From Yersinia kristensenii (lineage in GTDB: Bacteria > Pseudomonadota > Gammaproteobacteria > Enterobacterales > Enterobacteriaceae): DNA of 64,000 nt. Below the pieces are notes generated by a model. It was not told where the DNA came from, made no database searches, and saw nothing but the letters and a program-made list of their open reading frames with translations. How positions within the stretch are numbered: position 1 is the first letter of the stretch; the number at the start of each line of letters is the position of its first letter. Below, one piece after another: positions 12,274-64,000 of the stretch. The translations under genes were made by a program, and so were the position numbers. The stretch spans positions 2,976,001 through 3,040,000 of the forward strand of contig NZ_UHIY01000001.1 in assembly GCF_900460525.1 (NCBI RefSeq), read 5' to 3'.

Positions 12274-12286
12274 TAAGGATAACCCG

Positions 12287-14696: not shown

Positions 14697-15255
14697 GCTG
14701 TTTATTCGTGGGCAAAAAGTCCCGATGACCAAAGAAGCGGTGCGGGTATTGGCGCTGGAACGGCTGGCGTTATCGGGTGCCACTCACCTGATTGATGTTG
14801 GCGCGGGCACCGGCAGTGTGGCGTTGGAGGCGGCGCTGCGCTTCCCTCATTTACAGGTAACCGCCATTGAGTGCAACCCTACGGCCCTTGAATTGATTGA
14901 TGAAAACCGCCAGCGCTTGGGGTGCGGCAATGTGAACATCCTCGCCGGTGTCGCCCCCCTTGCTCTGCCGGATAAAGCCGACGCCATTTTTATTGGCGGC
15001 AGCGGCGGCCATTTAACTGACCTTATCGACTGGGCGCTGATGATGCTCAATCCCGATGGCCGCCTGGTGCTGACCTTTATTTTGCTCAATAACCTCAATG
15101 AGGCTTTAAACCACTTACAGACCTGCGCCGTCAGTGAGTTGGATTGTGTGCAATTGCAACTCTCCACTCTGACCCCTCTGGGCAGCGGGCACTATTTTAA
15201 ACCGAATAATCCTACTTATCTTATTTCCTGCCACAAGGAGGCGAGCAATGTCTGA
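14686..15255 (+). CDS. cbiT: CbiT, cobalt-precorrin-6B C15-methyltransferase (decarboxylating)
   Basis: The 189-residue class I SAM methyltransferase has the binding loop [14 protein letters not shown] at about residues 37-50. It methylates C15 and removes the C12 acetate carboxyl. ATG 14686 lies inside the end of cbiE, and its stop overlaps the cbiF start by 8 nt. Confidence 0.94.
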
Positions 15256-17830: not shown

Positions 17831-17860
17831 AGAGATATTCATTATGACGGACGATTCACT

Positions 17861-44827: not shown

Positions 44828-46318
44828 TTAATGCACTGCGGCATACATGATTCTTTTTTCATCGGCCTGATCAGCGGTAAACTCTTCCACGATCCGACCC
44901 TGCCGTGACACTAAAATGCGATCAGACAACGCCAGAATCTCCGGCAGATAGGAGGAGATAACCACCACCGCCAGGCCGTCATCTGCCAACTGATTGATTA
45001 ACTGATGAATCTCGTGGATCGCGCCGACATCCACACCGCGTGTCGGCTCATCAAAAATGATTAAGCGTGGCTGCTGTACCAGACTTTTACCGATCACCAC
45101 TTTTTGTTGATTGCCACCCGATAGCGCCACCACGGGCTCTTGCGGGTTGAGAGCACGGATATTGAGCCGCTGTCGCCACTGTTCCGCCAGTGCGGCTTGC
45201 GCCCGTCGGCTAACCAGCGGGGAGCGATGTTGGTTGGAGGCAAGCAAACCGGCATAGAGGTTCTCGGCAATGGTCGCGGTCTCGAAAAAACCTTCTGATT
45301 TACGGTCTTCAGTCACATACACGATGCCATCTTTCATCGCCTGACGCGGTACGCGGTAGCGCACTGGCTGACCATTAAGCTCAATGGTGCCGCCGCGCGA
45401 AAAGTCCCGCTTATCAATGCCAGCAATAATGCGGGCAGTTTCGGTGCGCCCTGATCCCACCAGCCCAAAAATGCCAGTAATTTGGCCACGATAAAGGGAA
45501 AACGCGTTATTGCGCACCACATTGCCACGTGAGAGATCTTGCACGCTGAGGATTTTTTCCCCCGCAGGGCGCGGTGTGCGCGTGGTTGTCGCCGGTGTAC
45601 TGCCCGCCGTCCTGCCGACCATATGGGCAATGATGCTTTCGCGGTTAAAAGCTTGCACGTCGTCGGTGATAATATGTTTGCCATCGCGCAAAATAGTGAT
45701 GCGATCGGCCAGTTGCAGCGCCTCTTCAATGGCGTGACTGATAAATACCAGCGTCATTCCCTGTTTCTGCAAACGGCGCACCAGAGCGAAAAAGTGCCGT
45801 TTCTCTTCTGGCGTTAAGGTAGCGGTCGGTTCATCGAAAATAATCACTTTGGCTTGCAGACGTACTGCGCGAGCGATTTCCACCATTTGTCTTTTGGCCG
45901 CGCCCAGTGTTGCCACTTGTGCCGTGGGGTCCACTGGGAAGTTAAGGGCTTGCAAGAATTGTTGCGCGGCAATATAGACATCGCGCAGGCGGTTAAAGGT
46001 TTTCTCATCGCCCAACCAAATGTTCTGCGCCACGGTCATTGATGGGATCAGGCTGGTCTCCTGAAACACCATGGCGATGCCCTGTTTGCGCGCCTCGGCG
46101 GGGGAGGTAAAACTGACGGGACGCCCCTCCCAACGCAGTTCGCCGTGCTCCGGGGTGACGACTCCGGCGATGATTTTGCTGAGTGTCGATTTCCCCGCGC
46201 CGTTCTCCCCCAGTAGCGCGTGGACTTCACCGGCGCGCAGGCTAAAACTCACCTCATCCAACGCCTGCGCCCCGTGATAATGCTTACTGATGTTGGTTAA
46301 TGTCAGCAGCTCATGCAT
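44828..46318 (-). CDS. Ribose-type ABC transporter ATPase (tandem domains)
   Basis: The 496-residue RbsA-like ATPase has two nucleotide-binding domains. The first has Walker A LLGENGAGKST (about 35-45) and Walker B VIIFDEPTATL. The second has the degenerate Walker A FGLVGSGRTE and a good signature LSGGNQQKVVIGKSL with LIIFDEPTRGVD, the usual RbsA/XylG pattern. It overlaps the upstream propeller gene by 8 nt. It energises uptake through the two permeases. Confidence 0.93.
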   Translation of the reverse strand: MHELLTLTNISKHYHGAQALDEVSFSLRAGEVHALLGENGAGKSTLSKIIAGVVTPEHGELRWEGRPVSFTSPAEARKQGIAMVFQETSLIPSMTVAQNIWLGDEKTFNRLRDVYIAAQQFLQALNFPVDPTAQVATLGAAKRQMVEIARAVRLQAKVIIFDEPTATLTPEEKRHFFALVRRLQKQGMTLVFISHAIEEALQLADRITILRDGKHIITDDVQAFNRESIIAHMVGRTAGSTPATTTRTPRPAGEKILSVQDLSRGNVVRNNAFSLYRGQITGIFGLVGSGRTETARIIAGIDKRDFSRGGTIELNGQPVRYRVPRQAMKDGIVYVTEDRKSEGFFETATIAENLYAGLLASNQHRSPLVSRRAQAALAEQWRQRLNIRALNPQEPVVALSGGNQQKVVIGKSLVQQPRLIIFDEPTRGVDVGAIHEIHQLINQLADDGLAVVVISSYLPEILALSDRILVSRQGRIVEEFTADQADEKRIMYAAVH

Positions 46319-47396
46319 GCTGTGCCTCCTGGTGCAAATTAATCAGCACATCGCCACCGCGCGACGCGACCCACAGCCCGTGAGCGCTATCCAGCACGCT
46401 GTTCACCCCATGCCGGTGCCCATCGGCCCGGCTGTGATAGCTGGCAATCGGCTGCCCCTGTTTATCCAACCGCACCACTAACCCCCACGAACGGCTGGGT
46501 GACCAGGGCTTATGCACGCCCATGGTTTTGACCGCGCCGCACTGAAGCGGCTCAAGAAAACTGTGGCCGGAGGCATAAGCGGGCGCAATCCAGAACTCCG
46601 GTGGTACTTCAGCCAGCATCGCCAACCGATAAGATTTCTCCTGTAACACAAACTCCACCAGCCGGTTGCGTGGGGCAAAACAACTCAGCCAGTAGCCGCT
46701 GCCGTCATGGCTGGCGACAATGCGCGAGGGATAAGCGGGCAAATGATCTAGCACCATGCGGATGCCGGGGCGGGTAAGGGTTAGCTCAATGACCCGGTGA
46801 CGCCAACTTTCCGTCACCAGCAGCGTATCCGCTTGATGGCCATGGGCAATCCCTTGCGGGTAGCCCAGCCCGTCGGCCAGACAGCGCGTTTGTTGGGTGT
46901 TGAGATCCCACAACCATACCGCGCCTTCCCGGTGTTTTAGCAGCAGGTCGCGTGACCACTCGCTGGCCGGTAACCGCCGTGATCCGCTGCACAGCACCAG
47001 CCGTTGGCTATCGAGAAACAGCATGGCGGTAATGCAGCGCAGCGCATCATGCGGGCGGGTTAATGGTTGCGGTGCGCCATCCTGCCACAGCCACAATGAA
47101 TCATCCGCCAGCGCCAGTGCCAGCCCGCCACCGGGGCGCGCGGCGATACTGATAATCTGCTGCGGAAATTGCCACAGCCGCGTCGGCGCACTGTGCGGTT
47201 CCTGCGCCAACTGCAACAATTGGGAGCCGCTGGAGAACAGCACCCGCTCGCCATCGGCGGTTAAATTATCGGGCTGCGGCGTTACCAGCCAAGGGGCGGC
47301 ATCATCCAGCGCGGTGTTAGGTTGTAGCGGCCCATCCAGTGGCGGAATGGTCAGCGCTTTGCCGCGAAAAAGATCGAGCAGTGAAAAACGGCTCAT
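46311..47396 (-). CDS. Beta-propeller protein of the SMP-30 / strictosidine synthase type
   Basis: The 361-residue protein resembles the propeller fused to the neighbouring permease: GLGYPQGIAHGHQADTLLVTESWRHRVIEL parallels the GLRYTNGVCIAHDGQSLFLAESWACRVHRY segment there, and LPAYPSRIVASHDGSGYWLS parallels DMPGYPDNINRASDGRYWMA. No signal peptide is seen. The likely role is hydrolysis or sensing of a lactone or glycoside substrate, by family analogy only. ATG 47396 overlaps the fusion stop (ATGA); an in-frame start at 47411 is less likely. Confidence 0.75.
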   Translation of the reverse strand: MSRFSLLDLFRGKALTIPPLDGPLQPNTALDDAAPWLVTPQPDNLTADGERVLFSSGSQLLQLAQEPHSAPTRLWQFPQQIISIAARPGGGLALALADDSLWLWQDGAPQPLTRPHDALRCITAMLFLDSQRLVLCSGSRRLPASEWSRDLLLKHREGAVWLWDLNTQQTRCLADGLGYPQGIAHGHQADTLLVTESWRHRVIELTLTRPGIRMVLDHLPAYPSRIVASHDGSGYWLSCFAPRNRLVEFVLQEKSYRLAMLAEVPPEFWIAPAYASGHSFLEPLQCGAVKTMGVHKPWSPSRSWGLVVRLDKQGQPIASYHSRADGHRHGVNSVLDSAHGLWVASRGGDVLINLHQEAQHA

Positions 47397-49516
47397 GCAG
47401 ATTTCCCCCAATAAGAGTGATAGCCCGTCCAGTGGGGATCGGCGTCGGGCAAGCGGTAGCGGCCAATGCGGTTATTCAAAATGCCGCCCACATAGAGGTA
47501 TCCTTTGTGTTCGCGCATTGAAGTGACCATCGGGTGGCTCATACCGCCAAGGTTGCCGAGCACATCGTGAATTTCGCCTTGCTCACTGAATTTCACCACG
47601 CCACCAGTATTGATGTTGGGGAACAGCCACTCATCTTGCACCAGTCGCCGCGTCATACGCCGCCTCATGCCGGGGTGACGTAGCGCCAGATCGAAAGTGG
47701 GGGTGCGCATACCGAGCCACGCCATCCAGTAGCGGCCGTCCGAGGCGCGGTTGATGTTGTCGGGATAACCGGGCATATCGCGGATCACGCATTCCAGTTG
47801 GCCTTTTTTCGGCCCGTCGAACCAGTAACGGTGTACGCGACAGGCCCAGGACTCGGCCAAAAATAGTGACTGCCCATCATGGGCGATACAGACACCGTTG
47901 GTGTAGCGCAGGCCGCTGAGGAGTGTTTCGGTTTTGCCGCTATCGGGGTAGTAACAGAGCAGGCGGCCGGTAGGGCGGCTTTCGATGCTATCCAGCGCCC
48001 ATTCGTGCGCATCATAGCGCGTGGTGGAGTCGGTAAAGAACACCCGGCCATCCGGCGCGATATCACAGTCATTGGGATCACGCAGCCGCGCATCATCCAC
48101 CACTGACAGCCACGAGCGGCGGGTTCGAGTTGAAAGCTGTTGCACCGTGCGGTCGCTCGTTACTGAATATAGCCCCATCGCCCCGACGCAAATTTTCAGC
48201 GATTGGTCTTTATCCAGCGCCAAACCTAAGGGAAAACCGCCAATATGGGTGAAAACCTCGGAGCGCTGATAATCGGGGGCGAAGAAACGGATAATTTCGC
48301 CGTGACGGGTACCGCAGTAAAGATGGTCATTGTTGTCGAGAATCACATCTTCCGGCCCTTCCAGCTCGCCCAAGCCGATAAATTCAGTCTCAGCCAGTTT
48401 GTCGTTCAGCGACCAGGCCGATTGCGCTGCCGGCTCTGCTGACAACGTTTCACCCACGCGAGTGTAAATCGGGGCCACATAGACATTCGCCAGCACTTTG
48501 TGCCGGTTTTTTAACCAGCGAATATCAAGAAAGACGGCGGCAATCAGCACCACCCCCAGCACCATTTGGGTGCTGCCGCTGGGCAGCCCGAGGCGGATTA
48601 GTCCATTGGTCAACAGCAGAACAATAATAGCGCCGAGGATGCCTTTCATGATGGAGCCACGGCCGCCGCCGAGACTGTTGCCACCCACCACACCTGCGGT
48701 CAGCGCCATGATCTCCAGCCCTAAGCCGGTGCCTGGGCCGACGCCGCCCATGCGTGTGGCGAGCAAAAAACCCGCCAGCCCACAGCACAAACCGGAGAGG
48801 ACATAGGTGATAAATACGGTGCGGCGCACCGCAATGCCGGTATTCCACGCCGAACGGCGCGAGCCGCCCACCGCCTGAATATGCCAGCCGAGGCGCATAC
48901 GGCTGAGCAGCAGATGCAGGCCGATAGCCACTAACACCGCCAGCACAAAACTGACCGGCAGCGGCCCGATTCCCTCTTCGCCGATGAAATTCCACTGCGA
49001 GTTATCCACTGACGACTGTTGAATTTGAGTGGCGTATTTCACCACCAGAATATCGAACAAGGTGCGCAGGAGGATAAAACTGACCAATGTGGTCAGAAAC
49101 GCTCGCAGCCGTAAATAGCCGATCAACACGCCATTAAAGGCACCCGCCAGTGCGCCGACCGCCAGTGTCAGTAGCAGCGATTGCCACAACGGCAGCCCCA
49201 GCAGAGAATTGGCTGAAACGGCAGTGAAAGCGCTAAGGGCAAAGATAGCGCCGACGCTAAGATCGATGCCACCACCAAGCATCACAATGCTCATCCCCAT
49301 CACCACCAGGGCAAACTCTCCCCACTGTCGCGAGGTGTCAGTCAGGCTCGATAGGGCGAAAAAGCCGGGCAGAAAATGGCCGAGCACGGGCAAGAGAATC
49401 AGCAGAAATAACAGCGGAATCACATTGTCGATCCAGCGCTTGGTCAGCAGCTCGCCGACCAAATAACTGGGAATTAGATTGTAGCGGAGCCGTGCCGCCC
49501 GTTCGCGCATAAACAT
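47393..49516 (-). CDS. Sugar ABC permease fused to a strictosidine synthase-like propeller
   Basis: Residues 1 to about 345 are a RbsC-type permease with eight to ten membrane segments and the signature MLGGGIDLSVGAIFAL (about 78-93). After a 30-residue linker, residues about 375-700 form a six-bladed propeller related to SMP-30/strictosidine synthase/APMAP, with RDPNDCDIAPDGRVFFTDST and DMPGYPDNINRASDGRYWMA. The frame is continuous with no stop or repeat at the junction, so it is a real fusion in this sequence. RbsC-type C termini are usually cytoplasmic, placing the propeller inside the cell. Confidence 0.88.
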   Translation of the reverse strand: MFMRERAARLRYNLIPSYLVGELLTKRWIDNVIPLLFLLILLPVLGHFLPGFFALSSLTDTSRQWGEFALVVMGMSIVMLGGGIDLSVGAIFALSAFTAVSANSLLGLPLWQSLLLTLAVGALAGAFNGVLIGYLRLRAFLTTLVSFILLRTLFDILVVKYATQIQQSSVDNSQWNFIGEEGIGPLPVSFVLAVLVAIGLHLLLSRMRLGWHIQAVGGSRRSAWNTGIAVRRTVFITYVLSGLCCGLAGFLLATRMGGVGPGTGLGLEIMALTAGVVGGNSLGGGRGSIMKGILGAIIVLLLTNGLIRLGLPSGSTQMVLGVVLIAAVFLDIRWLKNRHKVLANVYVAPIYTRVGETLSAEPAAQSAWSLNDKLAETEFIGLGELEGPEDVILDNNDHLYCGTRHGEIIRFFAPDYQRSEVFTHIGGFPLGLALDKDQSLKICVGAMGLYSVTSDRTVQQLSTRTRRSWLSVVDDARLRDPNDCDIAPDGRVFFTDSTTRYDAHEWALDSIESRPTGRLLCYYPDSGKTETLLSGLRYTNGVCIAHDGQSLFLAESWACRVHRYWFDGPKKGQLECVIRDMPGYPDNINRASDGRYWMAWLGMRTPTFDLALRHPGMRRRMTRRLVQDEWLFPNINTGGVVKFSEQGEIHDVLGNLGGMSHPMVTSMREHKGYLYVGGILNNRIGRYRLPDADPHWTGYHSYWGKSA

Positions 49517-51583: not shown

Positions 51584-51863
51584 TTTTAACTCTTTTTATA
51601 ATCTCAATATTGGATGAGATAATGTTTTTATTTTTATATTTGAAGTAATAATTAAAGTCAAAGTAGTAAAGCGTCTAGCGATAGAACAAAAATAGAAATA
51701 GTGCTTCGGTGATGATGATTGTTTTAATTTTTTAAGTCGATGCACTGAATAAAAGGTACGCAGTGGTTGATGATTTTCATTGTTGGAGGTGAGGAGTGGG
51801 GCAATTCTGCCATCATCGTGTGTGCTCCTGCGTCACTCAAGATCTTGCTTAATCCGTTGGCTA
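51584..51863. promoter_or_regulatory. Promoter region of the sugar ABC operon
   Basis: No gene is supported. A palindrome ATCTCA-N8-TGAGAT (51601-51620), 18 bp upstream of the first permease start, could be an operator. The rest is AT-rich and ends at the transposase remnant. Confidence 0.4.
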
Positions 51864-52319
51864 TTAGAACAATAAATTAACATCAACCTGCACATGATGC
51901 CCTGGAACCTGTTTCTCATAGCGTCTGAACAATGGCTTAGAGCGTTGTCGTTGATTTGGTGGAAGTTGATTTAGCCTATTTCGAAGAAAGGCATAATAAC
52001 AACCAGAGTGAGATATCTTGATATTATGAAATCGTAACAAATACCGCGATATTCTCTGAGGTCTAAAATGGTAGGTTGTACGCAAGTAAATTATTTGCTC
52101 TTCAATGTGCTTTTCCACATATCGAGTAGGATTTTCTGGGCAAGGTTTATGATTGATTAACCCTTTTTATCCATAGCACTCATAGACTTTTTTCCATGTG
52201 TTCTAGGTTTGCCTGCTAATATTAAAATGTCGACAGATTTTTGCGACATTTCTGGTATTATTTGCATAGTTCAAAAAATTTGTTTTGAGCGCTATATCTC
52301 GCTTTGCGTTAGCATTCAT
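51864..52319 (-). pseudogene. Decayed IS481-type transposase, N-terminal half
   Basis: Reading from ATG 52319 the frame gives a helix-turn-helix (NTRNVAKICRHFNISRQT), an amber codon (52205-52203), WKKVYECYG, an ochre codon (52169-52167), then NHKPCPENPTRYVEKHIEEQ and RYEKQVPGHHVQVDV, a layout typical of IS481-family transposases. It ends just where the DDE catalytic core should begin. GGAGG (52334-52330) still precedes the start. Two stops and loss of the core show it is inactive. Confidence 0.8.
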
Positions 52320-52791
52320 AATATCTATACCTCCGGCTATAGTTAGGAAACACTAACTGTCCACCGAGATCGAGACTTTCATAGTGCTGGTAACAGTGGC
52401 TTATGATTTCTAATACGCTTGCCGAATAGATATACTCGGTATTCCATCACTCGTGTAACTCCCCATCAATTTTATGTTAACTATATTTATAATATAAACA
52501 ATCATAATAGCTAGCTTAGTAATAAATCAATTGCAATAAATATAATAAACTAATAGTTATTTATTATCTTCTTGTTAATTAGTGTTTTTTATTTTTTTGT
52601 TTTTTTATATTAATTATTTCTTGCTGGTGTTATTTTTTTGCGCTATACATAAATACATATGATTTATAATCAAAATTAAATATTTTTTATTTAATTAGTT
52701 ATTGATTTATTTGTTATTAATTCAACTGGTGTCGTTCAGGGTATTAATATTTTTCTAATGGAAAGTTACTATGAATATAGGTGGCTAGACT
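52320..52791. other. AT-rich region upstream of the PKS genes
   Basis: No gene is supported. An inverted repeat AGTTAG-GAAACA-CTAACT at 52344-52361, just before the transposase start, may be part of the old IS end. From about 52480 to 52790 the DNA is extremely A/T-rich and probably contains the PKS promoter. A five-codon mini-ORF (52771-52788) ends 3 bp before the first PKS gene. Confidence 0.5.
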
Positions 52792-55146
52792 ATGAAAATA
52801 TTATTATTTTCAGGGCAGGGTCAGCAATATAAAGGCATGGGGAGAACACTGTTTTCCATTTATCCGCAGATTACTCAGGATGCTTCGGATATATTAGGCT
52901 ACTCGATTGAAGAGCTTTGTCTTGATGACCCATTGCACCGTTTACAACTCACTGAATATACTCAGCCAGCTCTTTTTGTTATTAATACTCTTGGTTATTA
53001 TCAATGGTGTGAGCGTTTTCCATCCACAAAGATTGATGCCCTTGTCGGGCATAGCTTAGGAGAGCTTTCTGCATTATTTGCTGCTGGCTGTTTCGATTTT
53101 AAAACCGGGTTACAAATAGTGCGTCAGCGCGGTCAATTAATGGGCTAGGCTGGCGAAGGGAGGATGGCTGCGGTACTTGGCTTACCGGCGATTGAACTCC
53201 AAGTAATGTTAAATGAATTTGGGCTGTCACGATTGGATTTGGTTAATTTTAATTCTACGAATCAAACGGTTATTGCCGGTGACAGTGATGCCATCTACCT
53301 TGCCGAGAAACAGCTTACCGAGCAAGGAATACAATGCATTGTGTTAAATGTTTGCGTACCTTTCCATTCACGTTATATGAATAAAGCTCAGGAGGAGTTT
53401 GCTACGTTTTTACACGAATTCACTTTTGCTGATCCGGAAATCCCCGTCATTGCGAATGCGACTGCACGTCGATATCCCCCTGGACAGGTCGCTCAATTAC
53501 TCGTACAACAAATTGCCAACCCAGTTAAATGGATGCAGAGTATTCAGTATCTTATGGGATTCGGTAATTTTGATTATGAGGAAATCGGTGCGGATTCGTC
53601 ACGTATCGGAGGAAATGTTTTGGGTAAGTTGGTGGATGACATTCGCAGCCACTCGCACTTTCTAGATAAGCATACTGAGGTATTAGCAACTGATGCCAGA
53701 GAAAATTGCCGCTATATTTTACCCAATATTCCCCCTGTAGTTGCACCTCCCTCTGAGATATATACCCTTGATTGGGATGCTAAACATTTAGGAAGTTCAG
53801 TTTTTCGTGAACGCTATGGTACTCAATATGCTTATGTGGCAGGGGCAATGTATCGGGCAATTGCATCTGAAGCATTAGTAATACAGATGAGTCAGGCAGG
53901 TTTATTGAGTTATTTCGGCAGCGGTGGTCTTAGTTTGCAACGAATTGAAAATGCGATCCAAACAATTCAGGCCCGGCTTGGTGTGGACTCTCTCTATGGT
54001 ATGAATTTACTCGCTGATTATGTAGACCCTGAACTCGAATTGGCGACTGTTCAACTCTATTTGAAATATGGCGTTCGTAATATTGAAGCTGCTGCTTATA
54101 TGCAGATAACACCTGCAATAGTGCAATTTCGTCTTAGTGGTTTGAGCCGTGATATTCAGGGTTATATTCAATGTGCTCATCACATATTAGCTAAGATTTC
54201 CCGATTAGAAGTTGCTCAAGCATTTATGAGCCCACCACCGGCAGAAATTGTCGCAATGTTATACCAGAAAGGTGCTATCACTGCTGAACAAGCTGAATTA
54301 GCTCAGTATATCCCGGTAAGTGACGATATTTGTGCCGAAGCTGACTCTGGTGGGCATACTGATGCTGGCATCCCTACTATTTTGCTGCCCGCTATTTTGC
54401 AGTTACGACAATCCATCATCGAAAAATATCACTATCAAGTGCCTCCCTGTGTGGGGTTGGCGGGGGGAATCGGTACACCGATGGCTGCTGCTGCCGCATT
54501 TGTTATGGGGGCGGATTTTATTCTAACAGGTTCGATTAACCAATGTACGGTGGAGTCAGGTTCTAGTGCGCTGGTGAAAGAGATGCTGCAACAAGCCAGT
54601 ATTCATGATATGGCATATGCCCCAGCAGGAGATATGTTTGAAATGGGTTCTCGGGTACAAGTCCTCAGAAAAGGGCTACTTTTCCCGCCACGTGCCAACA
54701 AGCTTTATGCATATTATCTGCAATATGACAGCCTGGAAGATTTACCTACCGCCGTACAGTCTCAATTAGAGGATTGTTATTTTAAATGTAGTTTGGCCGA
54801 AGTTTGGCAAGAAACTTTATATCATTTACAAGCAAGTGGACGGACACAGGATATTGCCAAAGCACAAGTTAATGCCAAATACCGTATGAGTTTAGTGTTC
54901 CGTTGGTATTTCAGTTACTCAACTCAGTTAGCTTTTAGCGGACTACCTGACGATAAGACTAATTATCAGGTACATACAGGCCCGGCTTTGGGGGCATTTA
55001 ATCAGTGGGTTCAGGGTACCGAATTAGCGGTATGGACACAGCGCCATGTTGATCTGATTGCAATGAAACTACTACATGCCACAGCCAATCAATTAACATC
55101 GATGCTAAATATTGGATGTGACGCCAGAGAAGGAATGAGGTCATGA
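52792..55146 (+). pseudogene. Trans-acting malonyl acyltransferase-enoylreductase (AT-ER), interrupted by amber codon
   Basis: Two collinear frames in the same register are separated only by TAG at 53146-53148. The upstream part (118 aa) is the AT N-terminal half, with GQGQQYKGMG and nucleophile Ser88 in GHSLGE. The downstream part (660 aa from ATG 53164) gives the rest of the AT with catalytic His in VPFHSRYM, then a PfaD-like FMN enoylreductase (GLAGGIGTPMAAAAAFVMGADFILTG). AT-ER proteins of this design serve trans-AT synthases. AGGGAGG directly precedes ATG 53164. Ser and His lie on opposite sides of the stop, so activity needs suppression, reassembly or a sequence correction. The ER alone could still be made. 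Confidence 0.85.
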
Positions 55147-55472
55147 AAGCCTCGCCTGTTTTGGATTATCATATCTACATTATTCATATTGTGAAAAATA
55201 ATAGCTTATTGGTCGATTATTTATTTGAAGATTATGATGATAACGAATCAGCATTGCTGCAATTAATATACGGTTCATCTGATATTAAAATTCATCATTG
55301 GTTGGAAAATATATTACTCAACGAAATAGATGTATTCGAAATAGAATCAGTTTCTTCAAAAACTCTTGCACAAGATGCGGTAGAGTTCTGGAGCGCTTAT
55401 TTCCGGTCAATTGGTATTTCCGTGATTGAAACTGATCATATTTGTGAACGATTGGTCATGAATAAAATATGA
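55143..55472 (+). CDS. Small protein of unknown function in the PKS operon
   Basis: The 109-residue acidic protein is not recognised. It has no membrane segment or signal peptide and is mostly helical in appearance (EDYDDNESALLQLIYG, AQDAVEFWSAYFRSIG). Its ATG overlaps the stop of the AT-ER gene by 4 nt, so it is coupled and probably real. A structural or docking role in the synthase is only a guess. Confidence 0.65.
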   Translation: MKASPVLDYHIYIIHIVKNNSLLVDYLFEDYDDNESALLQLIYGSSDIKIHHWLENILLNEIDVFEIESVSSKTLAQDAVEFWSAYFRSIGISVIETDHICERLVMNKI

Positions 55473-55515
55473 CTTTCTACCGGTATCGACTATTTAATTA
55501 TTTGGGGAGGGAGCT

Positions 55516-58500
55516 ATGTTGGAGTTTGTGAACAGGTTTGCCAACAATTGGGCCGCTACACCTGTAATTCATGCTCTTGCCCGACGTGGAGTGCTTGATG
55601 TGTTAGCGGAACAACCGATAAGTATTAGCCAGTTAGTTTTACGCTTTAGAGCTAATGCAGGGCATTTACAGGTGGCACTGCGGATATTATTTGAATTGGG
55701 CTGGATAGATTCCCCCTTGATCAATCACTATCAAGCTAGCCCCCTACTGAAGACTGGCAAAGACTTACCAGAGGATCTGGATAAACTTATTAATGTCATC
55801 ATGACGCCAACTCCTCTACAAAAGGTACCTGCCGAACTCTATACCTGGCTTAGTCGGTGTACGGCTCATTGGCAAAATACGGATCCCGATATTGCTATTT
55901 TATTAGAAGGCGCATTACTGACACCTATATTGTCTGAATTACACGGTTTGGGAGCCGCTAGCTTGGAGTTACCGCCGATTTTGGGCGGAATAAGCACCCA
56001 AGTATGGAATGAGCTCCAACAGTTATTCGTGCAAAATGAATGGGGGCAATATACACACAGTGGATTTCACCTTAGCCCATCAGGCCGTAGTTTGTTAGAG
56101 AGCGGTGGCGCTCTCGGTATGCTGATGTCTTACGCGGCGATGTTTCGACGAATGGAGGATTTGCTATTTGGTGACGCGGGCTCAGTGTTTGATACTAACC
56201 AGCAAGGGCATGAGGGGCATATTGATCGTACGCTTAATGTTACCGTAAGTGGGTGGCAGCATCAGAGCCACTTTGCCGAACTGGACCTGCTGATTATTGA
56301 TATTTTTACCCGGACACCTTTAGCGGAACAACCACGTTATATTGCCGATATGGGGTGTGGGGATGGTAGCCTGTTATTGCGAATTTATCAGGTTATTTCT
56401 ACCCGTACGCCACGAGGACAAGCATTAAAATCCTATCCTTTGATACTGATTGGTATCGACTACAACGTATTGGCGCTCGAAGCCACAGGGCGCACATTAG
56501 CAGAATTACCACATTATTTGATCAAAGGGGATATTGCTGATCCTCAGCAATTAGTCCGCGATCTCATCGCTCAAGGAATTAATGATCTCGAATATATTTT
56601 GCATATACGCACTTTTCTGGATCATGACCGGCCTTTCGTTCCCGTAGAAGAAAATCAAATCGCTCTTCAGCGTAAGGCTCTATCGTATAGCGGGGTGTAT
56701 GTGACAACTGATGGCCAGGAGATTGATGCAGGATATGCCGTGCAAAGTCTGGTTGAACATTTGCGTCGTTGGAAATCGGTAGTTTCTCACTTTGGCTTAA
56801 TTTTACTGGAGGTTCACTGTTTGCGCCCGGCAACAGTGCGACGACTCCAGAATTCAACGGAAAGTCTGTATTTTGATGCCTATCATGCCTTTTCCAGACA
56901 ACAACTGGTTGAAGCCCCAGTATTTTTGATGAGTGCCGTGGAGGCAGGGCTTTTCCCAAAACAGGGTGTATCGCGATGTATTCCCAAAACAGCCGATTTC
57001 ACCCGAATATCACTACATTGTTTAATGCCAAAACCCTACACTGTGCGGCATCCTACGCGGCTTGATTTACCTGAATTGGAAAAACTCGATAGATTGAGTC
57101 AACCTGAGAATCTTCATACGCCGCAACATGAATTATTGCGCCGTCTAACTGATTTTCCCCTAGGCCAAATGGTTTTGGAACTGGATCGGCAAATTGTCGC
57201 CGTATTGTATACACAGCGAATTGAATCAGTTGATGCTTTATATACCTGTCAGTATCGTGATTTGGGGCAATTACATCGTGCGGATGGTCGCTATCTTCAG
57301 TTGTTGGGGCTTTATGTTCTACCTGAAATGCATGGTCGAGGTTACAGCGATGCATTACTGGAGTTGATGCTCACTTACTGTGCTGCTCTTGAGGGGATTG
57401 ACTCAGTGGTCGGGGTAACTCGATGTGCTAATTTTGTACAACACAAAGCCACCCGTGACATTGCCTGTTATATCCAACTGCGTAATGATCAAGGGCAACA
57501 CCAAGACTCAATGCTGCATTTTCATGCGTCTCATGGTGCCACCATCCATAAACCATTATATGGATTTCGGCCAAAAGATACTGATAATGATGGTATTGGA
57601 GTGTTGATTGAATATTTTTTACACCAACAAGATACACATCTCGCCCTAGAAGTTCCCTCTGAGAAGCCAATTTATCCCCTAATGAGTGCTGATGAATTAG
57701 CGAATATTGTGCGCAGTCATATCTTGAAATTATTAGGGCACCAGCGAGCAGAAACTTACGGTGAGTTCGTTCCCTTAATGGAAATGGGGCTGAGTTCGCT
57801 TGAACTGCTTGAGTTGCGACGTAAGCTCGGCGAGAGTATGGGGGAATTATTATCGCCGACATTTTTATTTAGCTATGGCACTGCGGCAGCTATCACTGCA
57901 TTTTTTGCCCAAAAGAATAATGCTTTACCTGCTACTCGCCCTTTCCCCTTGTCAGAACCTCATATGCCGTCACTTTCCCCTATTCTATCTGGAGAAAAAC
58001 GGGTCGAACGTAGTGAATGTTCTGAGTCTAACAGCATTGCTATTATTGGTATGGCTTGTCGGTTTCCTCCTAATGCAGATACGCCAGAAAAGTTCTGGCA
58101 AAATCTAATAGCAGGTACAGATAGCATTGGACTATTGCCTGATGGTCGTCAATCTTCACGATTGGCCTCCTCACACCGACTCCATTGGCGAGCAGGATTT
58201 CTCAGAGAGGTTGACCTGTTTGATGCCAGATTCTTTCGTATCTCGCCTCTGGAAGCTGAATTACTTGATCCGCAGCAGCGTCTGTTATTAGAAATCGCCT
58301 GGGAAACGTTGGAATCAGCAGCTATCGCTCCTTCCACATTGCGTGGTACGCCCACCGGGGTTTTTATTGGGTTGATGGGGAGTGGTTATCAGGGATTGAT
58401 CACCCAGCAAAACAATGATGTAGATAACAATGCCTATTTTGCTACCGGTAATGCCTGTTCCGTGGCTGCAGGTCGATTATCTTATTTCTTTGACTGGCGA

Positions 58501-61500
58501 GGTCCGGCCCTTAGCATTGATACCGCATGTAGTTCCTCATTAGTCGCTATACACACCGCATGCTGTAGTTTGCTACAAGGTGAGTGCGATTTTGCTTTGG
58601 CGGCAGGGGTCAACTTACTGCTGGATGATAGGTTGTTTATGGCGTACCAGCATGCCGGAATGCTCTCTCCCGATGGTCATTGCAAGACGTTTGATACTCT
58701 GGCTGATGGCTATGTTCGTGGTGAGGGCTGTGCCGCAATTGCCTTGAAAAAACTTCAAGATGCACAAAATGACGGTGATCGTATTCTCGCGGTGATCCGT
58801 GGCAGTGCTATCAATCAAGATGGCAGCAGCAGTGGTTTGACCGCCCCTAACCAGCCTGCCCAGCAGGCGGTAATTCAAGCAGCATTGTCACGGGCAGGGG
58901 TCAACGCGGATGAAATAAGTTATTTGGAGGCTCATGGCACTGGCACTAAATTAGGTGATCCTATTGAGGTGATGGCAGCCGCTGAAGCTTTAGGTAACGG
59001 AAGAGCACCGAATGCTCCCCTGCTCATCGGCTCGGTCAAAAGTTCTATTGGTCATCTTGAAGCAGCAGCAGGCATCGCAGGTCTAATTAAAGTCGTATTA
59101 TCAATGGAGCACGATACTCTCCCATCGCAGTTACATTTCTCGATACATAACCCGCTAATTCCTTGGGAGAATTTGCCTGTTAAAGTGGTTTCTCAGACAC
59201 AAAAATGGCCGGCAGGGGTAAAGCGTGCGGGTCTCAGTTCATTTGGTTTTAGTGGTACCAATGGGCATCTGATTATTGAGGAGTACAGGATGGCGAACGC
59301 GATACGGCCAGCTGCCATTGAACCTGTCCTGATCATTCTGTCTGCCCGTACCAAGTCACAGTTACATGAACAAGCTAATAAATTGTTGTTATATATCTCG
59401 GACACCCCTCTCGATCTCCATGATTTGGCCTACACATTACAGGTGGGTCGTGAAGCGTTTGGTACCCGATTAGCTTTTACGGCTAATGCCCTTGAAAGTG
59501 TGAAGAAACAATTAGCGCAATACATTGAGGGCAGCAAGGTAACAAACGAGCTGTATCAAGGGGATATAAAACAGAATAGTGAGAGGAGGGCAACAGGCGG
59601 TGAGGATAGGCAAAATACCATCGATAATGGGTTGCGTGAGGAGAATATTGGCAAACTTGCGGCGCTGTGGGTCAACGGTGGAGATGTGGAGTGGCAGAGT
59701 CTATATTCCCATGTTAAACCGCAACGTATTAACTTACCGACTTATGTTTTTAACCGTGAAAGCTACTGGATTCCTGTAACTAACATCCCGTCCTTGCCAA
59801 AGAATGGGACAGAGCCATCGGATGGTGAGATTAGGCATCCACTCCTGCATCGTAATACCTCGAACTTAGGTCAGGTCCGTTATAGCACCACCTTGACTGG
59901 CAACGAGTCATTTTTGCGTGATCACCGGGTGCGTGGTGAGCAAGTAGTGCCCGGCGTTGCACAACTGGAGTGGGCTCGGGCGGCAATGGCCTTTGCGAGT
60001 GACGAGAAGGTTGGGCACGGTATCGCACTTGAGCAAGTGACCTGGTTACAGCCCTTGAGAGTAACTAATCAACTTGAAGTACATATCTGTCTCCATCAGC
60101 AAAGTGATGGGCGCGTTCACTTTAAAATCTATCGTGATCAAGGCGAGGAAGGGCAAGTTTATAGTCAGGGCTATGCTCTATATGCGAACAGTGAACCTAG
60201 ACCACAACTGGATATCCCTCATACGCAAACTCAGTGTTTTCATTCGCTAACGGGAGCTGAATGTTACAGCCAGTTTGCGCTTCACGGGTTCCAATATGGC
60301 GCCAGTTTTCAGGTACTCAAGCAATTAACTTGGGGGAATGAAATCGCGCTGGGTGTTTTCTGTCCTGGCGCTGAAGTATCTTCGTGTTATGAATGGCCCT
60401 TCGGATTATTAGATGGGGCACTACAAGCGACTCTGGGTTTAATTCAGCAGGGTGCTGCTACGCAGCTATCTTTACCATTTGCACTGGAACAGGTAATGCA
60501 ATGGGCTCCTTTGTCGAACGTGGTTCAAGTGGTGGTGCAACCTGACATCAATGATACTTCTACAATACGTAAGCTGGTGCTCTTTCTGGTCGATGCTGAT
60601 GGGCAAGTTGCTTTACGCCTGAGTGGTTTCAGTATGCGTCCGGCTTTCCGCAGTATTGACCCTGCGAGTCATCATCAGCCCATAATGATAAGCCCACAAT
60701 GGGATATTCAATCCTCGATACCGGCACTGACCACTGTGACTTATCAAGTGCATGGTGTCATTCTTTGTGAAATCGGTGATATGGAACCTGAGAGTGTTGC
60801 TGCGTGGTCGATGGCAATACCAGCAGCTCAACCGCACTATCTTAGTGAAGTTGGTACTCTTACCCAACGGTACACCGCATATGCACAATACATATTGTGC
60901 TGGTTACAACAAGCGGTCAAAGATGCTCGAAGTCAACCATTGCTGCTTCAAATAATCGTGCCTGATAGTGAAGAAGGTATGATATTTCAAGGGTTAAGCG
61001 GTTTATTGAACAGTGCTCAGCAAGAATATCCAGCATTAAAAACGCAGCTGATTGTCGTTGAACAGGGGATAAGTACATCTATATTAGCCCAACGATTGCG
61101 AGATGAGTCTGTTTCTCCAGCGGTCAGAGTGCATTATGGTGCTGGTTTACGTAAAGTATTTAATTTCAAAGAGTTAGAACCAATACTTATCAATGATACC
61201 GCGCTGCCTTGGCGTGATGATGGAGTCTACCTGATAACTGGTGGGCTAGGCGGCTTGGGACAGATATTTGTCCAAGAGATAACAAATAAATGTCGTGCGA
61301 GAGTGATATTAACGGGTCGCAGTCCCATGTCGGCAGAATATGAAAACATATTAATGGAGTTGCGTAGCAATGGAGCCAATATTATCTATAAAAGAGCAGA
61401 TGTCAGTGACTTGTGCGCCATCTCGCTCTTGCTGATGAATATCATCGCGGAATATGGTCAATTAAATGGTGTTATTCATAGCGCGGGAATTATTCGGGAT

Positions 61501-62283
61501 AGTTGGCTGGCGGCAAAAACGCCTCAGGAATTACAGGAAGTATTAGCACCAAAAGTCGCTGGGCTAATCGCAATAGATAGGGCAACACAGGATATCAAAC
61601 TGGATTGGCTAGTACTGTGTTCATCAATAAGTAGTGTTCTTGGCAGCATAGGCCAGACCGATTATGCCACAGCAAATGGCTTTATGGATGCCTATGCCGA
61701 ATATCGAACAGCATTGGTTGCCAAAGGTCTACGTCATGGCCGAACCGTTTCGATAGGGTGGCCATTATGGGCTCATGGTGGTATGCAAATGGATATTGAT
61801 GCTGTGGATGCATTACGTCGTCAGACGGGGCAAATTCCCATGCCGGATGCTGTAGGGCTAAGGATATTGCGCCAGGTGCTCGCGCATCAGGCAGCACATA
61901 TTATTGTGGGCTATGGCGAACCAGCACGGGTACGGCAACGGTTACTCGGGGGCAGTGAACCATTTATCCCCATCCAGCCTATATTATCGACAAAATCTAA
62001 CATGGCATTACCTGATGTTGAGCAATTATGTTCTTCAGTAGAACGCTTCATAATCACTCTTATTTCAACAGACTTGAAAATTAAAGAGGATGAGTTAGGG
62101 CGGGATATTCCATTCCCTGAATTTGGTTATGATTCTATTATGCTAACATCTCTTAGTAATAAATTGAATTCTCAATATAACTTGAAATTATCCACGATGA
62201 TATTTTTTGAATATCCAACGATTGCGACATTAGTAAATTATTTAGTTGGCGAGAAACGCGAAGAAATTACTGCTAAAAAGTAA
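55516..62283 (+). CDS. Type I PKS: MT-GNAT-ACP loading unit plus AT-less KS-DH-KR-ACP module
   Basis: The 2255-residue synthase has these domains: an adaptor/methyltransferase region (1-500; SAM loop ADMGCGDG 277-284; HIRTFLDHDRP 363-373, resembling the metal-site motif of AprA/SxtA-type MTs); a GNAT-like domain (505-695) with Thr635 and His670/His673 near the decarboxylase positions of CurA; ACP1 (Ser761); KS (Cys1005, His1140, His1180); DH (His1470, Asp1633); KR (GGLGGLG near 1906, Tyr2050); ACP2 (Ser2207). There is no AT between KS and DH, so the extender must come from a trans AT. All catalytic residues I can find are present. GGGGAGGGAG precedes ATG. GC content is visibly lower than in the cob region. 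Confidence 0.93.
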   Translation: MLEFVNRFANNWAATPVIHALARRGVLDVLAEQPISISQLVLRFRANAGHLQVALRILFELGWIDSPLINHYQASPLLKTGKDLPEDLDKLINVIMTPTPLQKVPAELYTWLSRCTAHWQNTDPDIAILLEGALLTPILSELHGLGAASLELPPILGGISTQVWNELQQLFVQNEWGQYTHSGFHLSPSGRSLLESGGALGMLMSYAAMFRRMEDLLFGDAGSVFDTNQQGHEGHIDRTLNVTVSGWQHQSHFAELDLLIIDIFTRTPLAEQPRYIADMGCGDGSLLLRIYQVISTRTPRGQALKSYPLILIGIDYNVLALEATGRTLAELPHYLIKGDIADPQQLVRDLIAQGINDLEYILHIRTFLDHDRPFVPVEENQIALQRKALSYSGVYVTTDGQEIDAGYAVQSLVEHLRRWKSVVSHFGLILLEVHCLRPATVRRLQNSTESLYFDAYHAFSRQQLVEAPVFLMSAVEAGLFPKQGVSRCIPKTADFTRISLHCLMPKPYTVRHPTRLDLPELEKLDRLSQPENLHTPQHELLRRLTDFPLGQMVLELDRQIVAVLYTQRIESVDALYTCQYRDLGQLHRADGRYLQLLGLYVLPEMHGRGYSDALLELMLTYCAALEGIDSVVGVTRCANFVQHKATRDIACYIQLRNDQGQHQDSMLHFHASHGATIHKPLYGFRPKDTDNDGIGVLIEYFLHQQDTHLALEVPSEKPIYPLMSADELANIVRSHILKLLGHQRAETYGEFVPLMEMGLSSLELLELRRKLGESMGELLSPTFLFSYGTAAAITAFFAQKNNALPATRPFPLSEPHMPSLSPILSGEKRVERSECSESNSIAIIGMACRFPPNADTPEKFWQNLIAGTDSIGLLPDGRQSSRLASSHRLHWRAGFLREVDLFDARFFRISPLEAELLDPQQRLLLEIAWETLESAAIAPSTLRGTPTGVFIGLMGSGYQGLITQQNNDVDNNAYFATGNACSVAAGRLSYFFDWRGPALSIDTACSSSLVAIHTACCSLLQGECDFALAAGVNLLLDDRLFMAYQHAGMLSPDGHCKTFDTLADGYVRGEGCAAIALKKLQDAQNDGDRILAVIRGSAINQDGSSSGLTAPNQPAQQAVIQAALSRAGVNADEISYLEAHGTGTKLGDPIEVMAAAEALGNGRAPNAPLLIGSVKSSIGHLEAAAGIAGLIKVVLSMEHDTLPSQLHFSIHNPLIPWENLPVKVVSQTQKWPAGVKRAGLSSFGFSGTNGHLIIEEYRMANAIRPAAIEPVLIILSARTKSQLHEQANKLLLYISDTPLDLHDLAYTLQVGREAFGTRLAFTANALESVKKQLAQYIEGSKVTNELYQGDIKQNSERRATGGEDRQNTIDNGLREENIGKLAALWVNGGDVEWQSLYSHVKPQRINLPTYVFNRESYWIPVTNIPSLPKNGTEPSDGEIRHPLLHRNTSNLGQVRYSTTLTGNESFLRDHRVRGEQVVPGVAQLEWARAAMAFASDEKVGHGIALEQVTWLQPLRVTNQLEVHICLHQQSDGRVHFKIYRDQGEEGQVYSQGYALYANSEPRPQLDIPHTQTQCFHSLTGAECYSQFALHGFQYGASFQVLKQLTWGNEIALGVFCPGAEVSSCYEWPFGLLDGALQATLGLIQQGAATQLSLPFALEQVMQWAPLSNVVQVVVQPDINDTSTIRKLVLFLVDADGQVALRLSGFSMRPAFRSIDPASHHQPIMISPQWDIQSSIPALTTVTYQVHGVILCEIGDMEPESVAAWSMAIPAAQPHYLSEVGTLTQRYTAYAQYILCWLQQAVKDARSQPLLLQIIVPDSEEGMIFQGLSGLLNSAQQEYPALKTQLIVVEQGISTSILAQRLRDESVSPAVRVHYGAGLRKVFNFKELEPILINDTALPWRDDGVYLITGGLGGLGQIFVQEITNKCRARVILTGRSPMSAEYENILMELRSNGANIIYKRADVSDLCAISLLLMNIIAEYGQLNGVIHSAGIIRDSWLAAKTPQELQEVLAPKVAGLIAIDRATQDIKLDWLVLCSSISSVLGSIGQTDYATANGFMDAYAEYRTALVAKGLRHGRTVSIGWPLWAHGGMQMDIDAVDALRRQTGQIPMPDAVGLRILRQVLAHQAAHIIVGYGEPARVRQRLLGGSEPFIPIQPILSTKSNMALPDVEQLCSSVERFIITLISTDLKIKEDELGRDIPFPEFGYDSIMLTSLSNKLNSQYNLKLSTMIFFEYPTIATLVNYLVGEKREEITAKK

Positions 62284-62329
62284 TTTCATTAATCAATATA
62301 GCCATATTACTTTTTCAGGAGTGTTATAA

Positions 62330-64000
62330 ATGCCTATTTTTAAAGAACCAATAGCTATTGTTGGTATAGGATGCCGTATGCCTGGAAAGGTTTTGGGGCC
62401 GGATGATTTGTGGATGTTATTACTTGGAAATATTAGTGGTATTATAGATATCCCTCCAGATCGTTGGAGTATACGTGAATATTACGATCCTAATCCAAAT
62501 AAGACTGGGAAGATGAAAGTAGCTAGAGGAGGGTTTATTGAAGGTGTCGACCTTTTTGATAACGAGTTTTTTAATATATACCCGAAGGAGGCTGAAAATA
62601 TAGATCCACAACAAAGACTATTATTACATAGCACGCATGAAGCATTAGAAGATTCGGGGGACACGCTAGATAAATTCCAAGGTTCTAAAACGGCTGTCTA
62701 TATTGGTTCATTCGCTAATGATTATCAGGATATACTTGCCGATAGCAATAACCGTTATTTAATTACTCCACATGCCCCAATGGGAACTTCCCTCACCTCT
62801 CTTTCAAATCGTATTTCTTATCTTTATAACCTTAAGGGGCCCAGTGTCACTCTTGATACTGCTTGTTCCACTTCATTGGTAGCAGTACACCATGCCTGTC
62901 AATGTATTTGGCATCAGGAATGTGATTCCGCCATCAGTGGTGGGGTTAGTCTCAATATTAATCCAGCGATGGCAATAATGTTGTCGAAGGGCAATTTTCT
63001 TAGCCCTGATGGTGAATGTCGTTCATTTGATGAAAGTGCTAACGGTTATGTACGCGGTGAAGGAGTCGCGGTGGTCTATCTTAAGACGCTATCAAAGGCA
63101 ATTACTGACGATAATAAGATATACGGTTTAATCCGGGGTAGTGCCTGTAATTCTGATGGTTTTACTGCTCAAGGTTTTACTGTGCCTAGCAGCGAAGCAC
63201 AAACAGATATGTTACATACTGCCTATCGAGATGCTAATATTAATGTCGACCAAGTACAATTTATTGAAGCGCATGGCACAGGAACCGCGATTGGTGACCC
63301 TCTAGAGGCAAGAGCCTTCGCTAATGTATTTAAGCCGAGGATTGACCACCTACCGTTATTAATAGGTTCTATAAAAAGTAACATTGGCCATCTTGAAGGA
63401 GCTTCCGGTATTGCTGGGCTAATAAAACTCGCTTTGTGCCTCTATCATAAATATATTCCCGCGAATCTTCACTTTAAAAAAGGTAACCCTAATATTGATT
63501 TTGATAATTGGGGTATTAAAGTGGTTGATAATAATCAAGTGTGGCCAGAGCAAGTTGATGGTAGTCCACGGGTTGGTGGCGTCAATTCCTTTGGTGCAGG
63601 GGGAACAAATGCTCATGTCGTATTAGAAGAATATATCGAGAGTCCCTCTGGAATATCGAAAAATCATCTAATTTCATATCGAGATAATATATCATCTTTG
63701 TTAAGGGTCTTTACTTGTAGCGCACATACTGAAGTTGCGTTAAAACAGCTATTAAATTCTTATCAAGATTATTTATCAAAAACCCAGTCAACATTAAATG
63801 ATATTTGTTTTAATTCGGGTAAACATCGGTCAGATTTACGTCATCGTATCGCTATTGTTGCCTGTGATTCTCAGGATTTAATTAACAAGATAGAGGGGTT
63901 TTTACAAGGAAATACCGCCAGCGGTGTAGAGTATTCAAAATTTCGTGAGAAAAAACCTCGGATAGCTTTTATTTTTACCGGACAAGGCCCGCAATGGTAT
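62330..64000 (+). CDS. Second type I PKS, KS followed by start of an integrated AT (partial)
   Basis: An uninterrupted frame of 557 codons runs off the right edge. AGGAG (62317-62321) precedes ATG 62330. Residues 5 to about 440 are a ketosynthase with Cys179 (DTACSTS), His315 (EAHGTGT) and His354 (SNIGHLE). A KS-AT linker follows, and the last residues, IAFIFTGQGPQWY, are the GQG start of an acyltransferase domain. This protein therefore carries its own AT, unlike the preceding synthase. Further domains lie outside the window. Confidence 0.93.
   Translation, partial: MPIFKEPIAIVGIGCRMPGKVLGPDDLWMLLLGNISGIIDIPPDRWSIREYYDPNPNKTGKMKVARGGFIEGVDLFDNEFFNIYPKEAENIDPQQRLLLHSTHEALEDSGDTLDKFQGSKTAVYIGSFANDYQDILADSNNRYLITPHAPMGTSLTSLSNRISYLYNLKGPSVTLDTACSTSLVAVHHACQCIWHQECDSAISGGVSLNINPAMAIMLSKGNFLSPDGECRSFDESANGYVRGEGVAVVYLKTLSKAITDDNKIYGLIRGSACNSDGFTAQGFTVPSSEAQTDMLHTAYRDANINVDQVQFIEAHGTGTAIGDPLEARAFANVFKPRIDHLPLLIGSIKSNIGHLEGASGIAGLIKLALCLYHKYIPANLHFKKGNPNIDFDNWGIKVVDNNQVWPEQVDGSPRVGGVNSFGAGGTNAHVVLEEYIESPSGISKNHLISYRDNISSLLRVFTCSAHTEVALKQLLNSYQDYLSKTQSTLNDICFNSGKHRSDLRHRIAIVACDSQDLINKIEGFLQGNTASGVEYSKFREKKPRIAFIFTGQGPQWY

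What the first reader, a model, noticed from the sequence alone, without database searches (positions are those of the whole stretch)
52792..64000. Unrecognised polyketide synthase cluster in a Yersinia-like chromosome
Seen: an AT-ER gene, a small unknown protein, a seven-domain synthase and a second KS-AT synthase on one strand, low in GC, next to a transposase remnant and running off the edge. Known: enterobacterial PKS loci such as yersiniabactin and colibactin have different first genes. Inference: this is a horizontally acquired cluster for a product I cannot name, possibly a short reduced or branched-starter polyketide.
Basis: partly seen in the sequence, partly recalled or inferred. Interest (0 to 1): 0.88.

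Follow-up and report, generated by a model that had tools for sequence, protein, structure and literature searches.

The report
Branched-starter polyketide cluster in Yersinia
A Yersinia chromosome carries a small, apparently undescribed gene cluster that probably builds a short branched fatty-acid-like molecule, starting from a unit made by adding methyl groups, although the first gene is interrupted by a stop codon.

Summary
The cluster is real and complete: four genes (window 52792 to 69508; the last ends 5.5 kb past the window) in a Yersinia, most likely Y. kristensenii. Gene 1: stand-alone acyltransferase plus PfaD-type enoyl reductase, interrupted inside the acyltransferase by an in-frame TAG. 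Gene 2: 109 residues, no Pfam match. Gene 3: 2255-residue synthase, MT-GNAT-ACP-KS-DH-KR-ACP, without its own acyltransferase. Gene 4: 2392-residue synthase, KS-AT-DH-ER-KR-ACP-TE. Gene 3 starts with a methylating GNAT loading module; its metal-site motif equals that of AprA MT1, recalled as able to methylate twice. Best prediction: isobutyryl starter, two reducing extensions (more if gene 4 iterates), release as an iso-branched reduced acid. The segment sits against tRNA-Asn, the kind of site used by the yersiniabactin island, and the relatives compared lack it there. The closest relatives found, in Y. wautersii, are 75-77% identical (genes 1 and 3); no named cluster of this order was found in the lists seen. 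The product remains a prediction.

The parts
51790..64000 (.). Acquired segment: left edge lies between 51701/51789 (last stretch shared with relatives) and 52792; right edge is window coordinate 70319, next to tRNA-Asn (70324-70399, minus strand), outside the window
   Evidence: blastn against four relatives; tRNA; no second copy of the tRNA end to the left
51864..52118 (-). Transposase remnant (84 residues) at the left edge
   Evidence: likeness by eye
52792..53148 (+). Gene 1, first piece (118 residues): N-terminal part of a stand-alone FabD-like acyltransferase with the GHSLGE motif; ends at in-frame TAG 53146-53148
53164..55146 (+). Gene 1, second piece (660 residues): C-terminal part of the acyltransferase (about 53164-53600) and PfaD-type enoyl reductase (53779-55095)
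   Evidence: TIGR02814 pfaD_fam 620.8 bits over cut-off 449; FabD_helical_ins
55143..55472 (+). Gene 2: 109-residue protein, no Pfam match; distant relatives in a Serratia fonticola plasmid PKS-like locus and in Paraburkholderia replicons
55516..62283 (+). Gene 3: 2255-residue synthase MT-GNAT-ACP-KS-DH-KR-ACP without an AT domain
56212..57018 (+). AprA-type methyltransferase domain (PF23525) of gene 3, with motif FDAYHAFS as in AprA MT1
   Evidence: E 1.3e-99 for the family; alignment to 6b39
57007..57627 (+). GNAT (starter decarboxylase type) domain of gene 3
   Evidence: alignment to CurA 2ree (E 2.7e-43) and match to GphF 6mfc (E 6.1e-30)
58030..59139 (+). KS of gene 3 with Cys-His-His motifs; followed by linker and DH, no room for an AT
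59836..60645 (+). DH of gene 3
61222..61773 (+). KR of gene 3
62330..64000 (+). Gene 4, first part: KS (62345-63475) and start of AT (from 63968); the gene runs to window coordinate 69508 as KS-AT-DH-ER-KR-ACP-TE, 2392 residues

Best explanation
A horizontally acquired, compact hybrid (part trans-AT, part cis-AT) polyketide synthase. Proposed order of events: malonyl is placed on the first ACP of gene 3 (normally by the stand-alone AT of gene 1). The AprA-type metal- and SAM-dependent methyltransferase adds two methyl groups to the malonyl alpha-carbon. The GNAT domain removes the carboxyl group, leaving isobutyryl-ACP. The AT-less module of gene 3 adds one malonyl unit, and its KR and DH reduce it to an enoyl, which the PfaD-type ER can saturate in trans. 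Gene 4 adds one or more fully reduced malonyl units and its thioesterase releases the chain. One pass each would give 6-methylheptanoic acid (or its 4-enoic form); iteration of gene 4 would give longer iso-branched acids. In this strain the AT of gene 1 is interrupted, so loading of gene 3 would have to rely on another acyltransferase (the AT of gene 4, or host FabD), or the pathway is impaired. Shown: gene content, domain order, active-site motifs, interruption, absence at the same place in relatives. Inferred: every reaction, the number of methylations and of extensions, and the product.
For: Domains and order. The loading part aligns over residues 1-707 with a solved MT-GNAT protein (7uci, E 4e-181; recalled as the saxitoxin-pathway one), over 2-574 with AprA MT1 (6b39, E 3e-127), and its GNAT with CurA; GphF GNAT is also hit. 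The motif FDAYHAFS is identical to AprA MT1, where 7uci reads FDAFQGFS; the eight best rows (P0002-P0009) all read Y/F-H there. A paper states that Thr and Arg are required for GNAT decarboxylation and gives dimethylmalonyl-to-isobutyryl for gephyronic acid, and proposes it for thiamyxin (PMC10100342, passages); gene 3 keeps a Thr and an Arg also present in CurA, though which residues are meant is recalled. KS, DH, KR, ACP, AT and TE motifs are present. A PPTase with 4PPT_N and ACPS domains lies 34 kb downstream. Y. wautersii holds the same kind of gene 3 and an uninterrupted gene 1.
Against: The in-frame TAG in gene 1. Two methylations is a motif argument, not an assay; His at that position is found in 47 of 113 rows examined, so the motif varies widely. 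The DH of gene 4 has Asp where the classical motif has Gly; of 11 gene-4 relatives checked, 6 also have Asp, 1 Asn, 1 Gly, and 3 did not match my pattern. Pfam's own GNAT model scores just below cut-off (20.1 against 20.7 bits). No regulator or exporter was seen among the cluster's ORFs. No expression or product data.
Confidence: 0.58

Rival explanations
1. Decaying remnant: the cluster was functional in a donor and may still be in relatives, but in this strain it is inactive because the trans-acyltransferase needed by the AT-less gene 3 is interrupted.
For: In-frame TAG at 53146-53148. The 660-residue form has 2 member sequences on 3 contigs, the longest (4730788) not this genome's contig, so it may not be a single assembly error. 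A gene-4 relative in another Yersinia (G003) is also broken.
Against: Genes 3 and 4, 14 kb of coding sequence, are fully open, with motifs present. Another Y. kristensenii sequence of gene 3 differs at 26 of 2255 residues and is full length. A start codon preceded by a purine-rich stretch follows the TAG, so the ER piece may still be made.
Confidence: 0.3
2. Same machine, different starter: the methyltransferase acts once (propionyl) or leads to a more branched unit.
For: Homologous modules are used with propionyl, isobutyryl or pivaloyl starters (recalled from the AprA literature); the motif position varies among relatives, with His in 47 of 113 rows.
Against: The metal-site motif is identical to AprA MT1; one MT domain was found, and the GNAT aligns with CurA over 207 residues, unlike AprA MT1, whose alignment stops at residue 574.
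Confidence: 0.25
3. A lipid rather than a classical polyketide: gene 4 is an iterative fatty-acid-like synthase primed with isobutyryl by gene 3, so the product is a medium or long iso-branched fatty acid.
For: A gene-4 relative in G022 has no second PKS ORF beside it (only methyltransferase-like ORFs, between cys-type genes; by eye); rows named as Bacteroidota hold relatives of 2384-2477 residues at 40-50% identity; a mono-modular KS-AT-DH-ER-KR-ACP enzyme was deduced to act iteratively (SwfA, PMC3908369, passages).
Against: Iteration cannot be read from sequence; gene 4 here is paired with a modular partner.
Confidence: 0.3
4. A known enterobacterial cluster (yersiniabactin or colibactin type) seen from an unusual angle.
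For: It sits at tRNA-Asn, the site type of the yersiniabactin island (PMC2801613, passages).
Against: No NRPS domain in the four genes; the genome's other six ketosynthase-family matches lie in frames of only 402-536 residues; no near DNA match in 20,395 E. coli records or 72,556 plasmids.
Confidence: 0.03

Closest known systems
Relatives in Yersinia wautersii (unnamed cluster, no product known)
   Same: Gene 3 of the same architecture (77% over the loading part, 2262 residues) and gene 1 of the same AT-ER type (75%, 783 residues)
Gephyronic acid loading module GphF and apratoxin loading module AprA
   Same: MT plus GNAT plus ACP start; sequence match to the solved AprA MT1 and GphF GNAT
   Different: Those start long myxobacterial or cyanobacterial assembly lines (recalled); here it starts a two-protein line with trans AT/ER in an enterobacterium; AprA's GNAT is truncated (recalled)
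Curacin CurA GNAT loading domain
   Same: GNAT aligned over 207 residues with Thr, His and Arg positions kept
   Different: CurA starts from acetyl, without an active methyltransferase (recalled)
Stand-alone AT-ER proteins such as those of Dyella jejuensis, Burkholderia cepacia and Glaciimonas sp. GG7
   Same: 62-63% identity to the 660-residue piece
   Different: No cluster-level match was shown
SwfA mono-modular PKS/FAS of sponge symbionts
   Same: KS-AT-DH-ER-KR-ACP order, like gene 4 (PMC3908369, passages)
   Different: Gene 4 also has a thioesterase; no sequence comparison was made
Yersiniabactin and colibactin islands
   Same: Enterobacterial PKS; yersiniabactin island at a tRNA-Asn site
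   Different: Both are PKS-NRPS hybrids; no NRPS domain and no integrase seen here

Membership tests
Methylating GNAT-type PKS loading module (AprA/GphF type) | AprA-type MT domain with N-terminal and winged-helix parts | tested here: met
   PF23526, PF23589, PF23525 over cut-off
Methylating GNAT-type PKS loading module (AprA/GphF type) | GNAT of the starter type, then ACP | tested here: met
   Alignment to CurA and match to GphF, motifs; Pfam's general GNAT model 20.1 bits, just below its cut-off 20.7
Methylating GNAT-type PKS loading module (AprA/GphF type) | Methylation of malonyl-ACP and decarboxylation in vitro | not testable with these tools
   needs an assay
trans-AT polyketide synthase | Module without its own AT | tested here: met
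   Gene 3: KS linker ends at residue 1339, DH begins at 1441, no AT match
trans-AT polyketide synthase | Intact stand-alone AT encoded with it | tested here: not met
   In-frame TAG splits it; uninterrupted in Y. wautersii. So 'hybrid with interrupted trans-AT', not a plain trans-AT system; gene 4 also has a cis AT
Highly reducing iterative type I PKS (gene 4) | KS-AT-DH-ER-KR-ACP in one protein | tested here: met
Highly reducing iterative type I PKS (gene 4) | Iterative use of the module | not testable with these tools
tRNA-Asn genomic island (HPI type) | Insertion at the 3' end of tRNA-Asn | tested here: met
   Homology resumes at 70319/70320 in four of four relatives compared, tRNA at 70324
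tRNA-Asn genomic island (HPI type) | Second copy of the 17-bp direct repeat and an integrase | tested here: not met
   No exact second copy of the tRNA end, down to 12 bases, in the 70 kb to the left; best partial match there has 7 of 22 mismatches (40001-71000); no integrase seen by eye among the listed ORFs between the edges, no family search for one was run. So it is at that site but not shown to be an island of that family

The most novel reading that the evidence does not exclude
Some Yersinia hold a SAM-dependent route to iso-branched acyl chains: an AprA-type loading module makes isobutyryl from malonyl and primes an iterative, fully reducing synthase, giving an iso-branched lipid or lipid tail without using valine or leucine breakdown, a kind of product I know of from no Yersinia.
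Probability: 0.25. Interest if true: 0.72.

Novelty: new variant of a known kind. Interest (0 to 1): 0.52.

Why it matters
Methylating GNAT loading modules are described mainly from cyanobacteria and myxobacteria (recalled; named rows include many cyanobacteria and two myxobacteria). One in Yersinia, feeding a two-protein line, would be a very small natural system in which starter methylation, trans-AT loading and trans-ER action can be studied together. It would give a genus best known for yersiniabactin (recalled) another kind of polyketide locus, with related genes 1 and 3 in Y. wautersii. The interrupted AT beside open synthases poses a clear question: can another AT load an AT-less module?

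Tried and rejected
Yersiniabactin/HPI: rejected, no NRPS domain in the four genes and no further long PKS frame among the genome's ketosynthase matches. Plasmid or E. coli copy: no near DNA match. Insertion by an HPI-like integrase: tRNA site met, second repeat not found, integrase not seen. Gene 2 as a GIY-YIG-like protein: an impression by eye, with a GIY-YIG gene near a Janthinobacterium PKS; Pfam gave nothing at E up to 10 for it and four relatives, and the single-sequence fold was too poor to use (mean pLDDT 46.5), so no fold search was run. Papers on methylation extent and the GNAT fold: not held, so those points are recalled. The genome-contig scan found six loci, best segment 38-44% identity, all matched from residue 721 or later, so without the loading part. 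The class-wide search found other AprA-type MTs (6 of 369 over cut-off, own included), so the domain itself is not unique.
Full report
Where it is. The window is G000:C1:2976001-3040000 of a 4.73 Mb, three-contig genome. A protein differing from gene 3 at 26 of 2255 residues is named Yersinia kristensenii in a public source (P0002).

What is there. Gene 1 (52792-55146) is a FabD-like acyltransferase joined to a PfaD-type enoyl reductase, but an in-frame TAG at 53146-53148 splits it; the pieces are 118 and 660 residues. The AT serine motif lies in the first piece and the AT His motif in the second. Y. wautersii has an uninterrupted 783-residue relative (75%). The 660-residue form has 2 member sequences on 3 contigs, the longest of 4,730,788 bases, which is not the contig of this genome (4,708,938); this argues against a single assembly error but does not settle it, since the members were not seen one by one. 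Gene 2 (55143-55472) is 109 residues without a Pfam match. Four plasmid records hold distant relatives (E up to 0.01): one Serratia fonticola plasmid beside acyl carrier, acyltransferase, dehydratase and HMG-CoA synthase genes, and three Paraburkholderia replicons, where I saw by eye no PKS among the ORFs listed nearby.

Gene 3 (55516-62283, 2255 residues) reads AprA_N, winged helix, AprA-type MT (family E 1.3e-99), GNAT, ACP, KS, linker, DH, KR, ACP. About 100 residues separate the KS linker from the DH, so there is no AT. Gene 4 (62330 to window coordinate 69508) is KS-AT-DH-ER-KR-ACP-TE. Then come 0.8 kb without a long ORF, tRNA-Asn and fimbrial-type genes.

Starter prediction. Residues 1-707 of gene 3 align with the solved protein 7uci, 2-574 with AprA MT1 (6b39), 498-704 with CurA GNAT (2ree); GphF GNAT (6mfc) is also hit. 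Where AprA MT1 reads FDAYHAFS, gene 3 is identical; 7uci reads FDAFQGFS. I recall, without a held paper, that AprA MT1 is an iron enzyme able to methylate malonyl-ACP once or twice and that 7uci is the saxitoxin-pathway enzyme, which methylates once. Of 113 of the 120 listed homologues (seven SxtA-like rows left out), 38 read YH, 8 FH, 1 VH, 16 gave no motif match and 50 other pairs; the eight best (P0002-P0009) all read Y/F-H. A paper states that Thr and Arg are required for GNAT decarboxylation, gives isobutyryl from dimethylmalonyl-ACP for gephyronic acid and proposes the same for thiamyxin (PMC10100342, passages only). Gene 3 keeps a Thr and an Arg shared with CurA; that these are the ones meant is recalled. 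Isobutyryl is thus the best guess, not a demonstrated starter.

Rest of the pathway. KS, DH and ACP motifs of gene 3 were checked on P0002, whose 26 differences do not fall in them, and the KR motif on the window's own protein; KS, AT, DH, ER, KR, ACP and TE motifs of gene 4 are present. The gene-4 DH has Asp in place of the usual Gly; of 11 gene-4 relatives checked 6 have Asp, 1 Asn, 1 Gly, and 3 did not match my pattern. In the genus search 4 of 25 genomes have a strong gene-4 match: own, G016 (55%), G022 (53%) and G003 in two pieces with a stop. In G022 the gene lies between cys-type genes with only methyltransferase-like ORFs beside it; in G003 small ACP-, SDR- and ligase-like ORFs follow; in G016 the contig is only 9 kb, so its surroundings cannot be told (ORFs named by eye). 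Rows named as Bacteroidota hold relatives of 2384-2477 residues at 40-50%. An iterative role is therefore plausible: a mono-modular KS-AT-DH-ER-KR-ACP enzyme was deduced to act iteratively (PMC3908369, passages only). A PPTase (4PPT_N and ACPS domains) lies 34 kb downstream.

Origin. Among 99 related genomes, 25 of them of the genus, only this one shows a full-length gene 3 (best three candidates per genome scored). The AprA-type MT is over cut-off in 1 of 295 genomes of the family (own) and 6 of 369 of the class, own included. No near DNA match in the E. coli or plasmid collections. In a tree of 49 of the 120 listed loading parts the two Yersinia sequences group with an unnamed sequence and Variovorax (99/95); under midpoint rooting they lie in a 13-row clade (100/100) that also holds Burkholderia, Bordetella, Achromobacter, a Silvibacterium MAG and a sequence from an Apophysomyces assembly. 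This suggests, but does not prove, a betaproteobacterial source. In all four relatives compared, homology resumes at 70319/70320, four or five bases before tRNA-Asn (70324-70399). On the left, G017 shares 51712-51789 and G006 shares up to 51701, with 0.1 kb and 6.3 kb of other DNA before the tRNA; G023 and G012 break further left. So the segment lies in a variable spot at tRNA-Asn. The tRNA end carries the 17-bp sequence given for HPI-type integration in PMC2801613 (passages; tRNA), but no second copy was found to the left and no integrase was seen, though none was searched for by family.

Judgement. The kind of machine is known; this combination, this host and the interrupted trans-AT make it a new variant. 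Paper listings for Yersinia kristensenii with polyketide (4 papers), Yersinia wautersii with polyketide (0), Yersinia with trans-AT and polyketide synthase (18) and Yersinia with antiSMASH and polyketide (25 shown of 170) showed no title describing it; these were read as listings only, apart from one enterobacterial survey that says PKS-like clusters are highly common in Yersinia without naming this one in the passages shown and the SwfA paper, of which passages were seen. Subscription papers and MIBiG were not searchable. Confidence is good on anatomy, moderate on starter class, low on the exact product and on activity in this strain.

Noticed in passing
47393-49516 (-): A 707-residue ORF looks by eye like an ABC-type sugar permease joined to an SMP-30/gluconolactonase-like C-terminal part, next to another such protein (46311-47411); an unusual fusion, not scanned.
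   Followed up: no
window coordinates 70324-70399, 82279-82354, 106743-106818 (-), beyond the window: Three tRNA-Asn genes within 37 kb, each a potential island site; only the first was compared with relatives.
   Followed up: partly
L048 (G003:C99) 10644-17841: Another Yersinia carries a broken gene-4-like synthase followed by small ACP-, SDR- and acyl-ligase-like ORFs (by eye); a different, decayed polyketide locus.
   Followed up: partly
L074/L075 (G551:C5): A genome of the same class has, by eye, a stand-alone AT and a PPTase-like ORF beside a synthase of at least 4312 residues that starts with an AprA-type methylating module.
   Followed up: partly
L067 6281-8033 (Janthinobacterium lividum plasmid): A GIY-YIG-type gene and a PPTase gene sit upstream of a PKS 36% identical to gene 3 over 78% of it; possible link to small unknown proteins near PKS genes.
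   Followed up: no
L057 4224-10514 (G006): The same tRNA-Asn spot in another Yersinia holds 6.3 kb of other genes (by eye regulator-, transporter- and dehydrogenase-like ORFs).
   Followed up: partly
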